Positions 7,765 to 44,044 of a DNA stretch of 64,000 nt are shown piece after piece. The stretch comes from Streptomyces sp. NRRL F-6676. GTDB taxonomy: Bacteria; Actinomycetota; Actinomycetes; Streptomycetales; Streptomycetaceae. The first letter of the stretch is position 1. Each line of letters begins with the position of its first letter. Made by a program: the position numbers and the translations under genes. The DNA lies in the NCBI RefSeq assembly GCF_000725625.1, contig NZ_JOHS01000016.1:62001-126000 (forward strand), given 5' to 3'. The notes beneath the pieces were generated by a model that searched no databases, was not told where the DNA came from, and worked only from the letters and a program-made list of their open reading frames with translations.

Positions 7765-7958
7765 GCGGGGCGCAAAGCCGCGTAAGCATGACAAAACGCT
7801 GTCAGTTGTCCACAGGCGAGTGACACGAACCGGTAACGGCAACAAGAATGCGGGTGTGACGCCTCGCGGTTTTCCACCGCGCGGCGTCCTGCATCGGGGT
7901 GGGCCGGTCCGCGTCACGACGCGTCGGCCCGAGAAAAGTACGGGCCGAGGAGGGCCGG

Positions 7959-8999
7959 GTGACGACCTATGACGATCGAGCGAGCCTCACAGATCTGACC
8001 GCCACCGTGGAGCGCGTCCGCAGCGCGGTGGAAGGGGTGATCGAGGGCAAGCCCGAGGTCGTACGGCTTTCGCTGACCGTGTTGCTCGCCGAGGGGCATC
8101 TCCTCATCGAGGACGTGCCCGGCGTGGGCAAGACGATGCTCGCCAAGGCGCTGGCACGGTCCATCGACTGTTCGGTGCGGCGCATCCAGTTCACGCCCGA
8201 CCTGCTGCCGTCGGACATCACGGGCGTGTCCATCTGGGACCAGCAGCGCCGGGACTTCGAGTTCAAGCCGGGCGCGGTCTTCGCGCAGATCGTGATCGGC
8301 GACGAGATCAACCGCGCCTCGCCGAAGACCCAGTCGGCGCTGCTCGAGTCGATGGAGGAGCGCCAGGTCACCATCGACGGCCAGACCTACGAACTCCCCC
8401 ACCCCTTCATGGTGGTGGCGACGCAGAACCCGGTCGAGATGGAGGGCACCTACCCGCTCCCGGAGGCGCAGCGCGACCGCTTCATGGCCCGGGTCTCGGT
8501 GGGCTACCCGAGCATCGAGGCCGAACTTCGGATGCTGGACGTGCACGGCGGGATCTCCCCGCTGGAGGACCTCCAGCCGGTGGCGCACGCGCACGAGATC
8601 GGCAAGTTGATCGAGGCCGTGCGGGGCGTCCACGTGGCCGAGCCGGTGCGGCGGTACGCGGTGGAGCTGGTCGCCGCCACCCGCACCCACCCCGAGCTCA
8701 GACTCGGCGCCTCGCCGCGCGCCACGCTGCACCTGCTGCGCGCGGCGAAGGCGTCCGCGGCCCTGAACGGCCGGGAGTACGCGCTCCCCGACGACATCCA
8801 GGCGCTCGCCGTGGCGGTCCTCGCCCACCGGCTGCTGCCCACCGCCCAGGCCCAGCTCAACCGCCGCACCTCGGAGCAGGTGGTCGAGGAGATCCTCCAG
8901 ACGACGCCCGTGCCCGCCGCGGCGCCCCCGCAGGGCCCCGGGCTCGCGATGGGCCGCGGGGCCCCCGCGTACGGCCAGCAGCCGCCGCGGAGGCTGTGA
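7959..8999 (+). CDS. MoxR-family AAA+ ATPase
   Basis: A chaperone-like AAA+ ATPase of the MoxR type, a family that typically works with DUF58/VWA proteins encoded next to it. The 346 residues contain Walker A (EDVPGVGKTML, about 51-61), Walker B (IVIGDEIN, about 111-118), and the family block ATQNPVEMEGTYPLPEAQRDRF. The C-terminus is a short Pro/Gly-rich tail. The GTG start is preceded by GAGGAGGGCC; a GTG 20 codons upstream lacks such a site. Its stop overlaps the start of the DUF58 gene by one base, so the pair is translationally coupled. Substrate unknown. Confidence 0.94.
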   Translation: MTTYDDRASLTDLTATVERVRSAVEGVIEGKPEVVRLSLTVLLAEGHLLIEDVPGVGKTMLAKALARSIDCSVRRIQFTPDLLPSDITGVSIWDQQRRDFEFKPGAVFAQIVIGDEINRASPKTQSALLESMEERQVTIDGQTYELPHPFMVVATQNPVEMEGTYPLPEAQRDRFMARVSVGYPSIEAELRMLDVHGGISPLEDLQPVAHAHEIGKLIEAVRGVHVAEPVRRYAVELVAATRTHPELRLGASPRATLHLLRAAKASAALNGREYALPDDIQALAVAVLAHRLLPTAQAQLNRRTSEQVVEEILQTTPVPAAAPPQGPGLAMGRGAPAYGQQPPRRL

Positions 9000-10369
9000 T
9001 GCCGCGGGGGGCGCCGGGGTCCGCGGCCACGGAGGAGCAGGAACGGGGCGGGCTGCGCACGGCGCTCGCCGGGCTCACCACCCGCGGGCGGTCCTTCCTG
9101 GCCGCCGGGGTCGCGGCCGCGATCTGCGCCTACGTCCTCGGCCAGGGCGAGCTGCTCCGGGTCGGGCTGCTGCTCGCCGTGCTGCCGCTGATCTGCGCCA
9201 CCGTGCTGTACCGCACCCGCTACCGGGTCGCGGGCAGCCGCCGGCTCTCCCCCGCGCGCGTGCCCGCCGGCAGCGAGGCCCGGGTCCATCTGCGGATGGA
9301 CAACGTCTCCCGGCTGCCCACGGGCATGTTGATGCTCCAGGACCGGGTGCCCTACGTGCTCGGGCCCCGGCCCCGGTTCGTGCTCGACCGGGTGGAGGCG
9401 GGCGGGCGGCGCGAGGTGTCCTACCGGGTCCGCTCGGATCTGCGCGGCCGCTATCCGCTGGGGCCGCTCCAGCTGCGGCTCACCGATCCGTTCGGCATGT
9501 GCGAGCTGACCCGGTCCTTCTCGACGTACGACACCCTGACCGTCGTCCCGCGCGTGGAGCCGCTGCCGCCGGTGCGGCTGGCCGGCGAGGCCACCGGGTA
9601 CGGCGACGGGCGGCAGCGCTCGCTGGCCCTGGCCGGTGACGACGATGTCATCCCGCGCGGCTACCGGCACGGCGACGATCTGCGCCGGGTGCACTGGCGT
9701 TCGACGGCCAGGTACGGCGAGCTGATGGTCCGCCGCGAGGAGCAGCCGCAGCGCGCCCGCTGCACGGTACTGCTCGACACCCGGGGCGGCGCCTACGACG
9801 GCGCCGGGCCCGACTCGGCCTTCGAGTGGGCGGTGGCGGGCGCGGCGTCCGTGCTGGTGCACATGCTGGAGCGGGGCTACTCGGTGCGGCTGCTGACCGA
9901 CACCGGCAGCTCGGTGCCGGGCGAGGGCTCCGACGGGTTCGCGGGCGCGAGCCAGGAGTCCGCGGACGCGGCCGGGCTGATGATGGACACCCTCGCGGTG
10001 ATCGACCACTCCGACGCCACGGGGCTGTCGGGCGCGTACGACGTGCTGCGGGGCGGGAACGAGGGGCTGCTGGTGGCGTTCTTCGGGGACCTCGACGAGG
10101 AGCAGGCGGCGATGGCCGCGCGGATGAGCCGGCGCGGTGGCGCGCTCGCCTTCGTCCTGGAGCCGGCCGGCTGGCTGCGGGAGGAGACCGACGTGCCCCC
10201 CGCCGGCCGGGGGAACGGCACCCGCGCGCTGCGGCTGCTGCGCGAGGCGGGCTGGACGGCGGTGCCGGTGCCGCGCGGCGCCGCGCTGGACGTGATGTGG
10301 CGCGAGGCGGACCGGCAACGCACGGGCCCGGGCGCGCTGAGCGGCGGCTACCCGGGAGGACGGCCGTGA
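8999..10369 (+). CDS. DUF58 domain membrane protein
   Basis: A 456-residue protein with two N-terminal membrane helices (roughly residues 25-75, SFLAAGVAAAICAYVLGQ and LLLAVLPLICATVLY) and a cytoplasmic DUF58 domain carrying the hallmark RGYRHGDDLRRVHWRSTARYGELMVR region. DUF58 proteins often contain a VWA-like metal site and accompany MoxR ATPases; the molecular function is unknown. The start ATG overlaps the MoxR stop. Its own stop TGA overlaps a GTG that opens the repeat ORF at 10366; in related streptomycetes I would expect the transglutaminase gene to follow directly. Confidence 0.92.
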   Translation: MPRGAPGSAATEEQERGGLRTALAGLTTRGRSFLAAGVAAAICAYVLGQGELLRVGLLLAVLPLICATVLYRTRYRVAGSRRLSPARVPAGSEARVHLRMDNVSRLPTGMLMLQDRVPYVLGPRPRFVLDRVEAGGRREVSYRVRSDLRGRYPLGPLQLRLTDPFGMCELTRSFSTYDTLTVVPRVEPLPPVRLAGEATGYGDGRQRSLALAGDDDVIPRGYRHGDDLRRVHWRSTARYGELMVRREEQPQRARCTVLLDTRGGAYDGAGPDSAFEWAVAGAASVLVHMLERGYSVRLLTDTGSSVPGEGSDGFAGASQESADAAGLMMDTLAVIDHSDATGLSGAYDVLRGGNEGLLVAFFGDLDEEQAAMAARMSRRGGALAFVLEPAGWLREETDVPPAGRGNGTRALRLLREAGWTAVPVPRGAALDVMWREADRQRTGPGALSGGYPGGRP

Positions 10370-11109
10370 GCGGCGGTGCGTCGGGAGAGGCGAGTGCGGG
10401 CGGCGGTCCGTCCGGAGCGGCGGACGTGAGCGGTGATCCGTCCGCAGGGACGGGTACGCGCGGCGGCCCGACCGGTAGGGCGGGTATGGGCGGCGGTCCG
10501 TCCGGAAGGACGGGTTTGCGCGGCGGTTGTCCGGGAGGGGCGGTCATGGACGGCGGCCCGACCGGAGGGGCGGGGAGGCGCGGCGGTCCGCCCGGAGGCG
10601 CGGGGAGGCGCGGCGGCCCGACCGGAGGCGCGGGAAGGCCCGGCGGCCCGACCGCAGCGACAGGCACGAACGGCGGTCCGTCCGGAAGGACGGGCATGCG
10701 CGGCGGCCCGACCGGAGGCGCGGGAAGGCGCGGCGGCCCGACCGGAGGCGCGGGGATGTGCGGCGGTCCGACCGCAGTGACAGGCACGAACGGCGGTCCG
10801 TCCGGAAGGACGGGTACGCGCGGCGGCCCGACCGGAAGGACGGGCACGCGCGGCGGTTGTCCGGGAGGGGCGGTCATGGACGGCGGCCCGCCCGGAGGCG
10901 CGGGGAGGCGCGGCGGCCCGACCGGTAGGGCGGGTTTGCGCGGCGGTTGTCCGGGAGGGGCGGTCGTAGACGGCGGCCCGGCTGGAGGCGCGGGAAGGCG
11001 CGGCGACCCGACCGGAGGGCGCGGCGGTCCGACCGCAGTGACAGGCACGAACGGCGGTCCGTCCGGAAGGGCGGGCATGCGCGGCGGGGTTTCGGAGGGG
11101 CGGGCATGA
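10366..11109 (+). CDS. Glycine-rich decapeptide-repeat ORF encoded by a minisatellite (coding status uncertain)
   Basis: A 247-codon frame that starts at a GTG overlapping the DUF58 stop (GTGA) and ends at a TGA overlapping the transglutaminase ATG (ATGA). The predicted product is almost entirely tandem ten-residue units close to RGGPTGGAGR, with variants NGGPSGRTGM, RGGCPGGAVM and DGGPPGGAGR; about half of all residues are Gly. It is the only plus-strand frame open from end to end: the transglutaminase frame carries in-frame TAGs and the third frame stops at 10780. Against coding: no recognisable domain, many GGA and AGG codons, and one minus-strand frame is also fully open. Collagen-like in spirit but without a strict Gly-X-Y period. 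It may be translated merely to keep ribosomes running into the next gene. Confidence 0.45.
   Translation: MSGGASGEASAGGGPSGAADVSGDPSAGTGTRGGPTGRAGMGGGPSGRTGLRGGCPGGAVMDGGPTGGAGRRGGPPGGAGRRGGPTGGAGRPGGPTAATGTNGGPSGRTGMRGGPTGGAGRRGGPTGGAGMCGGPTAVTGTNGGPSGRTGTRGGPTGRTGTRGGCPGGAVMDGGPPGGAGRRGGPTGRAGLRGGCPGGAVVDGGPAGGAGRRGDPTGGRGGPTAVTGTNGGPSGRAGMRGGVSEGRA
10397..11092 (+). repeat. Tandem array of about 23 imperfect 30-bp units
   Basis: Direct inspection shows a 30-bp unit close to CGCGGCGGCCCGACCGGAGG plus CGCGGGAAGG repeated with point changes, and higher-order blocks of several units that recur (for example GGTTGTCCGGGAGGGGCGGT at about 10525, 10855 and 10945). One unit near 11010 is shortened. 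Because 30 is a multiple of three, all frames repeat too. Confidence 0.9.
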
Positions 11110-13496
11110 GCGGGCGGGCACGGCTGGCGTTGTGCGCGGCGGTGGCGACGCTGATGGCGGCGTGCGCGCTGCTGCCGCTGGTGTCGCCGGCGACCTGGTT
11201 CTTCCAGGCGGTGTTCCTGGTGGTCGTGCAGACCGGGGTGGGCGCGCTGACCCGGCGGGTGCCGCTGGCCCGGTCGCTGACCCTGGCCTGTCAGCTCCTG
11301 GTCTCCCTGCTGCTGCTCACCCTGATCTTCGCCCGGGAGTACGCCGTCGCCGGGTTCGTGCCGGGGCCCGAGGCCTTCCGGTACTTCGGCGAGCTGCTGG
11401 ACACCGGCTCCGACCAGGTCGCCCAGTACGCCATCCCCGCGCCGCTCACCCCCGGCATCCGGCTGATGCTGGTCGGCGGCGTGGTGCTGATCGGCCTCGC
11501 GGTGGACACCCTCGCGGTCACCTTCCGCAGCGCGGCCCCGGCCGGGCTGCCGCTCCTCGCGCTGTACTCGGTGGCGGCGGGGCTGGCCGACGGCGGTGCC
11601 GCCTGGCTGTGGTTCCTGCTGGCGTCGGCCGGCTATCTGATGCTGCTGCTCGCCGAGGGCCGCGACCGGCTCTCGCAGTGGGGGCGCGTCTTCGGCGGCG
11701 GCACCCGCACCCCGGGCGGCGGCGCTCCCGGCGGCGGCACGGTGGCGCCCGTGCGCACCGGACGGCGGATCGGGGTGCTCGCCCTCGGCGTGGCCCTCGT
11801 CGTACCGCTCGCGCTGCCCGCGCTCGACGGCGGGCTGCTGGACGCCACCGGCGCCGGGGTCGGCTCCGGAACGGGCGGCGGCGGCACGATCTCGGCGGTC
11901 AACCCGCTGGTGTCGCTGCGGGACAGCCTGAACACGGACGACGACCGCCAGGTGCTGTCCTACCGCACCGACACCGAGGACACGCAGGACATGTACCTGC
12001 GGATCGTGGCCCTCGATGACTTCGACGGCACCACCTGGAAGCCGGCCCAGCGGCACATCGAGGACGTGCCCGGCACCTTCCCGAACCCCCTCGGGCTGAA
12101 GCAGGACGTCCGGCGCAGCGAGATCCGCACCCGGATAGCCGCTGCCGACGACTACGCCCAGGACTGGCTGCCGATGCCGTACCCGGCCAGCGGGGTCGAC
12201 GTCGACGGCAAGTGGCGGTTCGAGCCGGTGGGCCGCACGCTCGTCGGCGACCACGGGCAGACCACCCGGGGCGCGCGGTACACGGTGCGCAGCCTGATCG
12301 TGCAGCCGACCGCGCGGCAGCTGGCCACGGCGCCCGAGCCGCCGTCAGATCTGAAGCGCGAGTTCACCGCGGTCCCCGGCTCGCTGCCGGACGTGGTGGC
12401 GGAGAAGGCCCGCGAGGTGACCAAGGGCGCGGACAACCACTACGAGCAGGCGGTGAAGCTACAGGACTGGTTCGCGGTCAACGGCGGCTTCACCTACGAC
12501 ACCCAGGTGGAGGTCGGCAGCGGCTCCGGGGCGATCGCCCGCTTCCTCAGGGACAAGCGCGGCTTCTGCGTCCACTTCTCCTTCGCGATGGCGTCGATGG
12601 CGCGGACGCTGGGCATACCGGCCCGGGTCGCGGTCGGCTTCACGCCGGGGACGCCGCAGGCCGACGGGTCGATGTCGGTGGGGCTGCGGGACGCGCACGC
12701 GTGGCCGGAGCTGTACTTCGAGGGCGTGGGCTGGACCCGCTTCGAGCCGACCCCGAACCGGGGTTCGACGCCGGAGTACACGCAGACGCAGACCCCGACG
12801 GGTGAGAACCCCGAGGCGCCGCAGCCGTCGGCGTCCTCGTCCGCGGCCACGTCGGCCGAGCCGTCGGCGGACGAGAGCTGCTCGGCCGAGCAGAAGCGGC
12901 TACAGGCATGCCCGACCGAGTCGGCCCTGGCCGGCACCGCCGCCCACGACGACGGACCGCCCTGGTGGCAGCTTCTGGGCCTCGCGGCGCTGGCGTTGCT
13001 GGTGCTGGTCGTGCCGTTGCTGCCGATGCTGTGGCGGGTGCGGCAGCGGGCGGTGCGGCTCGGAGGGCACGGGCGGGGCGAGCGGGAGGCGGCCGGGCAC
13101 GTCCTGGCGGTGTGGCGGGAGGTCGTGGACTCCGCGTGGGACCTCGGGATCGTGCCCGACGACTCGCTGACTCCGCGGAAGGCGGCCGAGCGGATCGTGC
13201 GGCTGGGAAATCTCGAGGGGGCGGCGGCGGAGGCGATGCACCGGCTGGCCTCGGCGGTGGAGGAGATCCTGTACGCGCCGCACCCGCGGGCCGCGGGTGG
13301 GGTCGCCCAGGATGCGCGGGTCGTCGTCGGGGCGTTGCGGGAGGGTGTGGGACGGGTGGCCCGGGTGCGGGCGGGGCTCGCGCCGCGGTCGGCCCGGCGG
13401 GTGGTGTGGGCGGTGGCGGAACGGTGGGCGGCCCTGCGGGCGGCTGTTCGGAGCCGGGTGCCGTCGGTGCGGTGGCCGCGGCGGGCACAGGGCTGA
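11106..13496 (+). CDS. Transglutaminase-like membrane protein (DUF3488/TgpA type)
   Basis: A 796-residue inner-membrane protein: several N-terminal helices (about residues 8-240), an extracytoplasmic transglutaminase-like domain, a single C-terminal helix (about 620-640, QLLGLAALALLVLVVPLLPM) and a basic cytoplasmic tail (DUF4129-like). Catalytic Cys488 (RGFCVHFSFAM) and His531 (RDAHAWPELYFEG) are present, so the fold is probably active; partners and substrates in this family are not established. The ATG has GGAGGGG just upstream and overlaps the stop of the repeat ORF. The gene forms a conserved trio with MoxR and DUF58. Confidence 0.93.
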   Translation: MSGRARLALCAAVATLMAACALLPLVSPATWFFQAVFLVVVQTGVGALTRRVPLARSLTLACQLLVSLLLLTLIFAREYAVAGFVPGPEAFRYFGELLDTGSDQVAQYAIPAPLTPGIRLMLVGGVVLIGLAVDTLAVTFRSAAPAGLPLLALYSVAAGLADGGAAWLWFLLASAGYLMLLLAEGRDRLSQWGRVFGGGTRTPGGGAPGGGTVAPVRTGRRIGVLALGVALVVPLALPALDGGLLDATGAGVGSGTGGGGTISAVNPLVSLRDSLNTDDDRQVLSYRTDTEDTQDMYLRIVALDDFDGTTWKPAQRHIEDVPGTFPNPLGLKQDVRRSEIRTRIAAADDYAQDWLPMPYPASGVDVDGKWRFEPVGRTLVGDHGQTTRGARYTVRSLIVQPTARQLATAPEPPSDLKREFTAVPGSLPDVVAEKAREVTKGADNHYEQAVKLQDWFAVNGGFTYDTQVEVGSGSGAIARFLRDKRGFCVHFSFAMASMARTLGIPARVAVGFTPGTPQADGSMSVGLRDAHAWPELYFEGVGWTRFEPTPNRGSTPEYTQTQTPTGENPEAPQPSASSSAATSAEPSADESCSAEQKRLQACPTESALAGTAAHDDGPPWWQLLGLAALALLVLVVPLLPMLWRVRQRAVRLGGHGRGEREAAGHVLAVWREVVDSAWDLGIVPDDSLTPRKAAERIVRLGNLEGAAAEAMHRLASAVEEILYAPHPRAAGGVAQDARVVVGALREGVGRVARVRAGLAPRSARRVVWAVAERWAALRAAVRSRVPSVRWPRRAQG

Positions 13497-42471: not shown

Positions 42472-43272
42472 GTGCCGGTCCTCCCTGGAGCCGAGCCGTA
42501 CCGCCACGAGGGCGGTCCGGTCGGTGTGCTGCTCTGCCATGGCTTCACCGGTTCCCCGCAGTCGCTGCGCCCCTGGGCGGAGTACCTCGCGCGGCGTCAT
42601 CTGACCGTCTCCCTGCCACTGCTGCCCGGGCACGGCACGCGCTGGCAGGACATGCAGCTCACCGGCTGGCCCGACTGGTACGCCGAGGTCGACCGCGAGC
42701 TGCGCGTCCTGAGCGAGCGCTGCGCGCACGTCTTCGTGTTCGGCCTCTCCATGGGCGGGGCGCTGGCGCTGCGGCTGGCCGCGAAGCACGGGGACACGGT
42801 GCGCGGGGTCGTGGTCGTCAATCCCGCGAACAAGGTCCACGGGCTCGCCGCGCACGCCCTGCCGGTGGCCCGGTACCTCGTGCCGAGCACGAAGGGGATC
42901 GTCAGCGACATCGCGAAGGAGGGCGGCGAGGAGGTCGGGTACGACAGGATGCCGCTGCACGCGGCGCACTCCCTGCGGTCCTTCCTGCGCCGGGTGGACG
43001 GCGAGCTGCCGCAGGTCACGCAGCCGCTGCTGCTGTTGCGCAGCACGCGGGACCACGTGGTGCCGGCCGCGGACTCCGCGCGCGTGCTGAGCCGGGTGTC
43101 GTCGACGGACGTCACCGAGGTCCTGCTGGAACAGAGCTACCACGTGGCGACGTTGGACCATGACGCGGACCGGATCTTCGAAGAGAGCCACGCGTTCGTC
43201 GCCCGTCTCACGCCCGAGTCCGCGCCCGGGGAGGGGCACGACCACGAGGAAGGGACGGCCGTAGGTGGCTGA
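42472..43272 (+). CDS. Alpha/beta hydrolase, monoacylglycerol lipase/carboxylesterase-like
   Basis: A 266-residue cytoplasmic serine hydrolase. Motifs: VGVLLCHGFTGSPQSLRPW (oxyanion HGF), LPGHGTRWQDM, the nucleophile elbow VFGLSMGGALAL, the acid in LLLRSTRDHVVPAADS, and the catalytic His in EQSYHVATLDHDADRI. This layout matches the thermophilic Est30/monoacylglycerol lipase group (YvaK-like). GTG start with AGGAGACC upstream. Its 3' end overlaps the next gene by 8 bases, so the two are cotranscribed. Confidence 0.9.
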   Translation: MPVLPGAEPYRHEGGPVGVLLCHGFTGSPQSLRPWAEYLARRHLTVSLPLLPGHGTRWQDMQLTGWPDWYAEVDRELRVLSERCAHVFVFGLSMGGALALRLAAKHGDTVRGVVVVNPANKVHGLAAHALPVARYLVPSTKGIVSDIAKEGGEEVGYDRMPLHAAHSLRSFLRRVDGELPQVTQPLLLLRSTRDHVVPAADSARVLSRVSSTDVTEVLLEQSYHVATLDHDADRIFEESHAFVARLTPESAPGEGHDHEEGTAVGG

Positions 43273-44044
43273 GCACGACTCCGACCACGAGCCCGAGGAG
43301 CGAGGGCTCCCCCTCGACGAGGACGCCGCGTGGGCGGCGATCGTCGCGGGCTACGGCGAGGAACCGCCGGACCCGCCCGGCACGAAACCATTCAAACCGT
43401 TCCGCCCGGTACGCCCGCTCCGCCCGGTGGAGGAGGTCCCCCTCCCGGAGCCACCGGACGCGCCGGAGGAGTCCGGCGGAGCCGGCACGTCCGGCGGGGC
43501 CGGGGGTACGGGTTCGCCCGGCGGAGCGGGCGCGACCGGCGGGGCCGGTACGTCCGGGGGAGCCGGGGAGCCGGGCAGGGCCGGCACGTCCGGCGGAGCC
43601 GGGGGTACGGGACTGCCCGGTGGGGCCGAGGGGCCCGGCGGGTCCGGGGAGACCGGTGCGCCGGGGGCTTCCGGCCGGGCCGGTGGTGCCGGCGGAGCCG
43701 GGGCCGGGACGCCGTTGGGCGGGTCCGTTTCGTTCGCGCCCGGGGTGGGGCCGCGGGACTACTCGCCGCCGGGTGGTTCCGACCGGGACGACGACGAGGG
43801 GCACTTCGTGCCGCCGGAGCCGCCGCCGTTGCCCGCCTCCGACACCACCGCCCGGTTCGCCTGGCTCGGCGCGGTCGGCGGCCCGATCCTGCTCCTGCTC
43901 GCCGTCCTGCTCGGCTGGGACATGACCTGGTGGCTCACCACCGCCTGCATCGGCGGTTTCCTCGGCGGCTGCGCCACCCTCGTCGTACGCATGCACCCCG
44001 GCGACGAGGACGACGACGACCCCGGCCGGGGCGCGGTGGTCTGA
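43265..44044 (+). CDS. Membrane protein with collagen-like Gly-X-Y linker
   Basis: A 259-residue protein of unknown function. The first 70 residues are acidic and Pro-rich (LPLDEDAAWAAIVAGYGEEP is the conserved-looking part). Residues about 71-148 form an almost unbroken series of 25 or so Gly-led triplets (for example GTSGGAGGTGSPGGAGATGG), low in Pro. Then an acidic stretch, two adjacent membrane helices (about 197-240, AWLGAVGGPILLLLAVLLGW and WWLTTACIGGFLGGCATLVV) and a short acidic tail. GTG start inside the hydrolase gene's end. The linker is probably variable between species; it resembles, in composition, the repeat ORF at 10.4 kb. Confidence 0.82.
   Translation: MAEHDSDHEPEERGLPLDEDAAWAAIVAGYGEEPPDPPGTKPFKPFRPVRPLRPVEEVPLPEPPDAPEESGGAGTSGGAGGTGSPGGAGATGGAGTSGGAGEPGRAGTSGGAGGTGLPGGAEGPGGSGETGAPGASGRAGGAGGAGAGTPLGGSVSFAPGVGPRDYSPPGGSDRDDDEGHFVPPEPPPLPASDTTARFAWLGAVGGPILLLLAVLLGWDMTWWLTTACIGGFLGGCATLVVRMHPGDEDDDDPGRGAVV

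What the first reader, a model, noticed from the sequence alone, without database searches (positions are those of the whole stretch)
10366..11109. A 30-bp minisatellite forms a fully open ORF exactly wedged between two coupled genes
The MoxR-DUF58-transglutaminase genes are normally tightly coupled. Here about 740 bases of tandem 30-bp units separate the last two. One frame starts at GTG overlapping the DUF58 stop (GTGA) and stops at TGA overlapping the transglutaminase start (ATGA), giving a 247-residue protein of RGGPTGGAGR-like decapeptides. It is the only plus-strand frame without a stop. Either this is a new, fast-evolving Gly-rich protein, or a repeat selected to stay open so that ribosomes reach the next gene. 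Against coding: the 30-bp unit shows more G/C at third positions in the transglutaminase frame than in this one, and one minus frame is also open.
Basis: partly seen in the sequence, partly recalled or inferred. Interest (0 to 1): 0.72.

Follow-up and report, generated by a model that had tools for sequence, protein, structure and literature searches.

The report
Relay reading frame between coupled genes
In this Streptomyces a repeat array grew between two genes that normally overlap end to start, and it stayed one open reading frame touching both genes, as did the other insertions found at this spot, which suggests that such frames survive because they carry ribosomes to the next gene.

Summary
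Confirmed: 30-bp units fill 10370-11105, and one frame runs from GTG (overlapping the DUF58 stop) to TGA (overlapping the TgpA start), 247 codons. Openness alone is weak evidence: two minus frames are open too, and three kinds of shuffle leave the frame open in 14-98% of trials.

Comparison decides. Of 246 distinct DUF58-TgpA junctions, 32 carry spacers of 10-736 nt. All 32 are spanned by ORFs from the DUF58 stop to the TgpA start: 30 end in ATGA, one in TGATG, one is a chain of two. The peptides are mostly unrelated (4 of 496 pairs alike). Twenty further genomes gave one spacer, also a relay. A same-species one-contig genome has 46 codons instead of 247, a difference of 603 nt (3 x 201), in the same frame; relay changes there are mostly amino-acid-changing, those in the flanking genes are not.

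Best reading: tandem duplication of the stop-start overlap made a relay ORF that later expanded as a minisatellite. Selection keeps frame and overlaps, so ribosomes can pass from gene to gene; the peptide is probably a by-product. Translation itself was not measured.

The parts
7899..8999 (+). MoxR-type AAA ATPase gene (mechanical ORF; true start may lie further in)
   Evidence: Pfam AAA_3 E 2.7e-65, AAA_lid_2; ORF list
8996..10369 (+). DUF58 gene, stop TGA 10367-10369
   Evidence: Pfam DUF58 E 2.5e-9; ORF list
10340..10368 (+). 29-base DUF58 tail ending in the overlapping GTG: the likely proto-unit of the array
   Evidence: TRF extends the period-30 array to 10338; gapped score to the unit 17, reached by 3 of 593 control RTGA sites; the homologous 29 bases of the array-free relative L035 score 21, reached by 0 of 593
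10366..10369 (+). GTGA: relay start codon overlapping the DUF58 stop
   Evidence: sequence
10366..11109 (+). relay ORF, 247 codons, GTG to TGA
   Evidence: translation without a stop; same arrangement in 32 of 32 spacers
10370..11105 (+). minisatellite: 23 full 30-base units, one 21-base unit (10999-11019), one 29-base last unit (11080-11108)
   Evidence: TRF; unit table
11106..11109 (+). ATGA: TgpA start codon overlapping the relay stop
   Evidence: sequence
11106..13496 (+). TgpA-type transglutaminase gene
   Evidence: Pfam TgpA_N E 5.5e-62, Transglut_core E 1.4e-23, DUF4129

Best explanation
The array is a lineage-specific relay ORF. In most streptomycetes the DUF58 stop and the TgpA start overlap (NTGA or TGATG), an arrangement known for coupled translation by termination-reinitiation. 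In this lineage the junction was tandemly duplicated in the phase that makes an ORF start on the DUF58 stop and end on the TgpA start; 30-base copies then accumulated inside it. Ribosomes finishing DUF58 would restart at the GTG, translate the array and restart again at the tgpA ATG. Selection acts on the frame and on the two overlaps, not on the peptide. Shown: the anatomy, the phase of the spacers found, the multiple-of-3 length difference within a species, the lack of visible constraint on the peptide. Inferred: the duplication origin, that ribosomes really do this, and that loss of TgpA coupling is what removes other insertions.
For: 32 of 32 spacers among 246 distinct junctions are relays: 31 have length 1 mod 3 and are open, the other (L140) is a chain of two ORFs joined by its own ATGA. 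Stops over 1310 codons: 1 in the relay frame (the joint of L140), 17 and 15 in the other two frames. The 32 form 24 spacer-only clades with 21 parsimony changes on 241 tips. Hold-out: 20 further genomes, 1 spacer, a relay. Same-species genome G590: 133-nt spacer, 46 codons, GTGA and ATGA ends, 603 nt shorter. Nonsynonymous to synonymous codon changes 15:3 and 6:2 in the relay ends, 13:25 in DUF58, 9:20 in the first 400 TgpA codons. Nearest named relative has the plain ATGA. In E. coli pairs +14 nt cost 40-80% of reinitiation and +38 nt nearly all, and 15 nt of upstream gene suffice (PMC10666635).
Against: No expression data. A loosely defined G-rich motif stands before tgpA in 32 of 32 spacers, a strict Shine-Dalgarno-like motif in 17 of 32 (153 of 205 without spacer), so independent initiation is possible. 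Openness is not rare in such GC-rich DNA: joint shuffle probability only about 1e-4 for all 32 spacers together. Spacers are clustered on the tree (21 changes against a mean of 30 for shuffled labels; 9 of the 32 lie in one clade of 16), so they are not 32 independent events. The distance dependence of coupling, and whether it is reinitiation at all, is disputed. No spacers were seen at the moxR-DUF58 junction, so the rule could not be tested there.
Confidence: 0.75

Rival explanations
1. Functional protein: the Gly-rich repeat peptide itself has a function and is selected as a protein.
For: Open frame with start and stop in coupling positions; a second strain keeps related Gly-rich decapeptides.
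Against: pN/pS 0.95 among units; 15:3 and 6:2 nonsynonymous to synonymous changes between strains; 247 against 46 codons within a species; array absent in the nearest named relative; peptides of other lineages mostly unrelated (4 of 496 pairs alike); no relative found in one search; GC at third positions not highest in this frame.
Confidence: 0.08
2. Relay as a tuner: relay ORFs are adaptive because each extra restart lowers TgpA relative to DUF58, and length or unit number sets the dose.
For: Same anatomy as the best explanation; 5 to 247 relay codons and strong variation within a species; 12 in-frame start codons in the window's relay, counting the first GTG.
Against: No dose data; most junctions have no spacer; no sign that length tracks anything was looked for.
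Confidence: 0.1
3. Frameshift extension: ribosomes slip by -1 near the DUF58 stop and make a DUF58 protein with a Gly-rich tail; the relay start codon is incidental.
For: The relay lies in the -1 frame of DUF58; three in-frame heptamers of the X XXY YYZ shape lie in the last 90 nt of DUF58; two relatives carry long Gly-rich DUF58 tails in frame (L052, L053).
Against: The three heptamers are GGGCCCG, CCCGGGC and CCCGGGA, which are not the efficient A/T-rich kind (recalled). A frameshift needs no start codon at the stop, yet all 32 spacers have one, though this is inherited from the ancestral overlap. It does not explain why the relay must end on the TgpA start.
Confidence: 0.04
4. Neutral repeat: a GC-rich minisatellite that is open by composition and sits in phase by chance.
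For: Column-shuffled units stay open in 98% of trials; two minus frames are open as well.
Against: It does not explain why 31 of 32 spacers share one length phase and the 32nd is a two-step chain, nor the intact ends and the 603-nt difference within the species. If only 15 events were independent, the phase alone would have probability 3^-15, about 7e-8.
Confidence: 0.02

Closest known systems
Translationally coupled gene pairs with -4 or -1 overlap (termination-reinitiation; Huber 2019 PMC6728339, Huber 2023 PMC10666635)
   Same: NTGA overlaps, same strand, one operon; both ends of the relay have this form
   Different: Here a third, lineage-specific ORF with no conserved product stands between the two genes and re-creates the overlap at both of its ends
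Bicistronic design: a short leader cistron whose stop overlaps the start of the target gene (PMC5995908 seen as search listing and start of abstract)
   Same: A short ORF whose translation leads into the next gene
   Different: Natural, inside an operon, coupled upstream as well, and up to 247 codons long
Bacterial minisatellite / VNTR
   Same: Tandem units and strain-specific length
   Different: The one strain difference seen is a multiple of 3, not of 30, and leaves the gene overlaps intact

Membership tests
Translationally coupled overlapping gene pair | stop and start codons overlap (NTGA or TGATG) on one strand | tested here: met
   GTGA 10366-10369 and ATGA 11106-11109; 32 of 32 spacers in relatives
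Translationally coupled overlapping gene pair | translation of the downstream gene depends on translation of the upstream one | not testable with these tools
   needs reporters or ribosome profiling
Protein-coding gene under purifying selection | fewer nonsynonymous than synonymous changes, conserved homologues | tested here: not met
   pN/pS 0.95 among units; 15:3 and 6:2 nonsynonymous to synonymous between strains; no homologue in one search
Minisatellite / VNTR | tandem units of 10-100 bp | tested here: met
   period 30 and 90
Minisatellite / VNTR | length polymorphism between strains | tested here: met
   736 nt in the window, 133 nt in same-species G590; two strains only
Bicistronic-design-like leader cistron | leader stop overlaps the next start | tested here: met
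   ATGA at 11106-11109
Bicistronic-design-like leader cistron | Shine-Dalgarno motif for the next gene inside the leader | tested here: inconclusive
   before tgpA: strict motif in 17 of 32 spacers, loose G-rich motif in 32 of 32
Programmed -1 frameshift | slippery heptamer in frame plus stimulatory structure | tested here: inconclusive
   three G/C-type X XXY YYZ heptamers in frame in the last 90 nt of DUF58; structure not examined

The most novel reading that the evidence does not exclude
Streptomyces contains a natural class of product-free relay ORFs. Duplication of a stop-start overlap, in the one phase that survives, at once creates a new ORF coupled at both ends and translated from birth. 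It can grow to hundreds of codons while its peptide drifts freely: a ratchet that makes new translated ORFs inside operons.
Probability: 0.55. Interest if true: 0.75.

Novelty: new variant of a known kind. Interest (0 to 1): 0.62.

Why it matters
How far coupled translation depends on immediate stop-start overlap, and whether post-termination ribosomes scan, is debated. This junction is a natural experiment: each of the 32 insertions of 10-736 nt found in the survey re-closes the gap with an ORF. It offers a ready set of natural constructs, including two strains of one species (46 and 247 codons), for measuring single and double restarts. It also shows a route by which operons can gain new translated ORFs with no visible selection on the product.

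Tried and rejected
Openness as evidence by itself: rejected, composition explains most of it. Codon-position diversity among units as a coding signature: 0.292, 0.236, 0.271 for positions 1, 2, 3, no third-position excess. An ungapped weight matrix for the unit failed on the DUF58 tail, because that tail unit is 29 bases long; the gapped comparison gave moderate support. Protein search with the relay: none of the 7991 scored candidates passed. Control junction moxR-DUF58: 86 of 88 overlap by 4 or 1 nt and two were not resolved (L030, L039), so there was no spacer whose phase could be compared. Other genera: the 30 best matches to a Kitasatospora TgpA in a family-wide sample (29 of one genus, 1 of another) had 0 spacers; this is not an even sample. 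The 20 hold-out genomes were also taken from the high-scoring rows, not at random.

Rows set aside. 284 loci were given to the survey; L191 and L286 had no TgpA in the locus; 282 were scored; 246 remained after removing repeats by identity of the last 60 letters of the junction. Of the 246: 182 overlap by 4, 23 by 1, 32 spacers, 9 other computed values. The 9: L079, L222, L274 are ATGA and L175 is GTGATGA by eye; L087 and L263 are GTGATCAGC; L155 is GTGATGTTG, in frame; L069 has a true 1-nt gap; L220 is unresolved, TgpA aligned only from residue 76. Five loci were left out of the second tree (L087, L263, L220, L222, L175). Nearly all junctions are Streptomyces; L039 is Kitasatospora. The window itself is one of the 32 spacers. 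The joint shuffle probability includes L140, which has the chain stop.

Papers: PMC10666635, abstract, section 7, and part 1 of section 11; PMC12548453, passages; PMC6728339, PMC5995908 and the others, search listings and starts of abstracts only. I saw no listed paper describing such relay ORFs; searches were made, and most listed papers were not opened.

Full report
WHAT IS THERE. The window lies on contig C14 of an 8.1-Mb assembly; the nearest named match is Streptomyces griseoaurantiacus JCM 4763. The operon is moxR (7899-8999), DUF58 (8996-10369) and a TgpA-type transglutaminase gene (11106-13496), named by Pfam. Between the last two lie 736 bases of tandem units: in register, 23 full 30-base units, one 21-base unit (10999-11019) and a 29-base last unit (11080-11108). 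The GTG that overlaps the DUF58 stop opens a frame that ends in the TGA overlapping the TgpA ATG: 247 codons. The other plus frames hold 5 and 3 stops, the 5 including the DUF58 stop; two minus frames are open. In the own genome the array DNA has three further weak matches of 58-80 bases and the peptide has none.

OPENNESS ALONE SAYS LITTLE. Shuffling each unit column leaves the frame open in 98% of trials and random substitution from the consensus in 17%; dinucleotide shuffling leaves it open in about 14%. pN/pS among units is 0.95 in this frame. GC at third positions is 0.77 in the relay frame and 0.89 in the TgpA frame. One protein search found no relative.

RELATIVES. I gave 284 loci to the survey; 282 could be scored and 246 junctions were distinct. 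In 182 the DUF58 stop and TgpA start overlap by 4 nt, in 23 by 1 nt; 32 have spacers of at least 10 nt; 9 had other computed values, of which seven are overlaps or in-frame starts on inspection, one is a true 1-nt gap and one is unresolved. S. griseoaurantiacus (L035; DUF58 93% identical) has the plain ATGA, so the array is by parsimony a gain in this lineage.

THE KEY RESULT. The 32 spacers are 10 to 736 nt long. In each the DUF58 stop carries an overlapping start codon (24 ATG, 6 GTG, 2 TTG). In 31 of 32 the spacer length is 1 mod 3, exactly the phase that makes that frame end at the TgpA start, and these 31 are open: 30 end in the TGA of ATGA and one (L038) in TGATG. The remaining one (L140, 354 nt) is a chain of two ORFs of 59 and 61 codons joined by an internal ATGA. 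Over 1310 codons the relay frame has one stop, the joint of that chain; the other frames have 17 and 15. No spacer gives TgpA an in-frame N-terminal extension. The relay peptides are mostly unrelated: 4 of 496 pairs reach E 0.01, two of them within one spacer-only clade and two between neighbouring clades; with masking of simple sequence only the two within clades remain.

INDEPENDENCE. On a tree of 241 tips the 32 spacers form 24 spacer-only clades with 21 parsimony changes; shuffled labels give 30 on average, so spacers cluster, and 9 of them lie in one clade of 16. If only 15 events were independent, the phase alone would have probability 3^-15, about 7e-8; the joint probability of openness under shuffling is only about 1e-4. 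After the idea was fixed I fetched 20 further genomes of the genus: one had a spacer (40 nt) and it is a 15-codon relay. A last search gave one more unseen junction, without a spacer (L368).

SAME SPECIES. A one-contig genome that the tool labels the same species (G590) has a 133-nt spacer of related sequence: 46 codons, GTGA at one end and ATGA at the other. The difference from 736 is 603 nt, a multiple of 3 but not of 30. DUF58 and the first 1200 bases of tgpA are 97.1% and 97.5% identical; the first 78 and last 54 bases of the spacer are 69% and 80% identical. Codon changes, nonsynonymous to synonymous, are 15:3 and 6:2 at the relay ends, 13:25 in DUF58 and 9:20 in the first 400 codons of TgpA. 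Homology of units inside an array is by position and so uncertain. Frame and ends are kept; the peptide is not.

ORIGIN. TRF extends the array into the DUF58 tail, to 10338. The 29 bases that end in the overlapping start resemble the unit: in the array-free relative no control reaches the score (0 of 593 RTGA sites of the window), in the window itself 3 of 593 do. Duplicating 29 bases across such a junction would by itself create a mini-ORF overlapping both genes, and added 30-base copies keep the frame (inference). In other lineages the spacer opens with a copy of the TgpA 5' end: 12 of 12 bases in L083, L160 and L168, 11 of 12 in four more. Spacers were not seen at 86 resolved of 88 moxR-DUF58 junctions, nor at 30 junctions of other genera of the family, 29 of them from one genus.

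MECHANISM. In E. coli pairs a gap of +14 nt costs 40-80% of reinitiation and +38 nt nearly all of it, and the last 15 nt of the upstream gene suffice (PMC10666635). The same paper reports that others favour de novo initiation over reinitiation, and a review describes a weaker distance effect (PMC12548453, passages). A relay ORF restores the overlap at both ends whatever its length. Insertions in the two other phases would either extend TgpA or leave it uncoupled, and neither kind was found. The pattern fits purifying selection on coupling, with the peptide a by-product. Not shown: translation of the relay, dependence of TgpA on it, or any effect on dose. A strict Shine-Dalgarno-like motif stands before tgpA in 17 of 32 spacers and in 153 of 205 junctions without one; a loose G-rich motif stands before all of them, so independent initiation is not excluded. 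A -1 frameshift from DUF58 into the relay is not excluded either: three in-frame heptamers of slippery shape, made of G and C but for one base, lie in the last 90 nt of DUF58.

VERDICT. A real and unusual feature: a minisatellite that serves, or at least survives, as a relay ORF. Its components (NTGA coupling, minisatellites) are known. A recurrent, strictly phased relay ORF at a natural junction was not seen in the papers listed, most of which I did not open. On checking I kept the odds as they were, since no corrected fact bears on them.

Noticed in passing
window 43265-44044 (repeats 43453-43703): A second Gly-rich repeat region (TRF periods 18, 36, 45 and 99, score up to 249), here inside a 259-aa ORF, in frame with it; no Pfam match for the repeat stretch in any of the three plus frames.
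   Followed up: no
L052 and L053, end of DUF58: In two relatives the DUF58 protein itself carries a long Gly-rich repeat-like tail (237 and 174 nt beyond the alignment) and still overlaps tgpA by ATGA, so the same spot expands in the DUF58 frame too.
   Followed up: partly
G012 (C1:8334626 and C1:6329758): The best DUF58 match and the TgpA match lie about 2 Mb apart, so the operon may be split in this species.
   Followed up: no
L222: The DUF58 alignment stops at residue 339 and the frame then runs on into tgpA, although the ATGA junction is intact in the DNA: a frameshift in DUF58 or an assembly error.
   Followed up: no
clade of L238, L239, L056, L237, L236, L060, L227, L232, L233: A spacer-rich clade: 9 of 16 tips carry relays of 13 to 31 codons, a good place to watch relay turnover.
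   Followed up: partly
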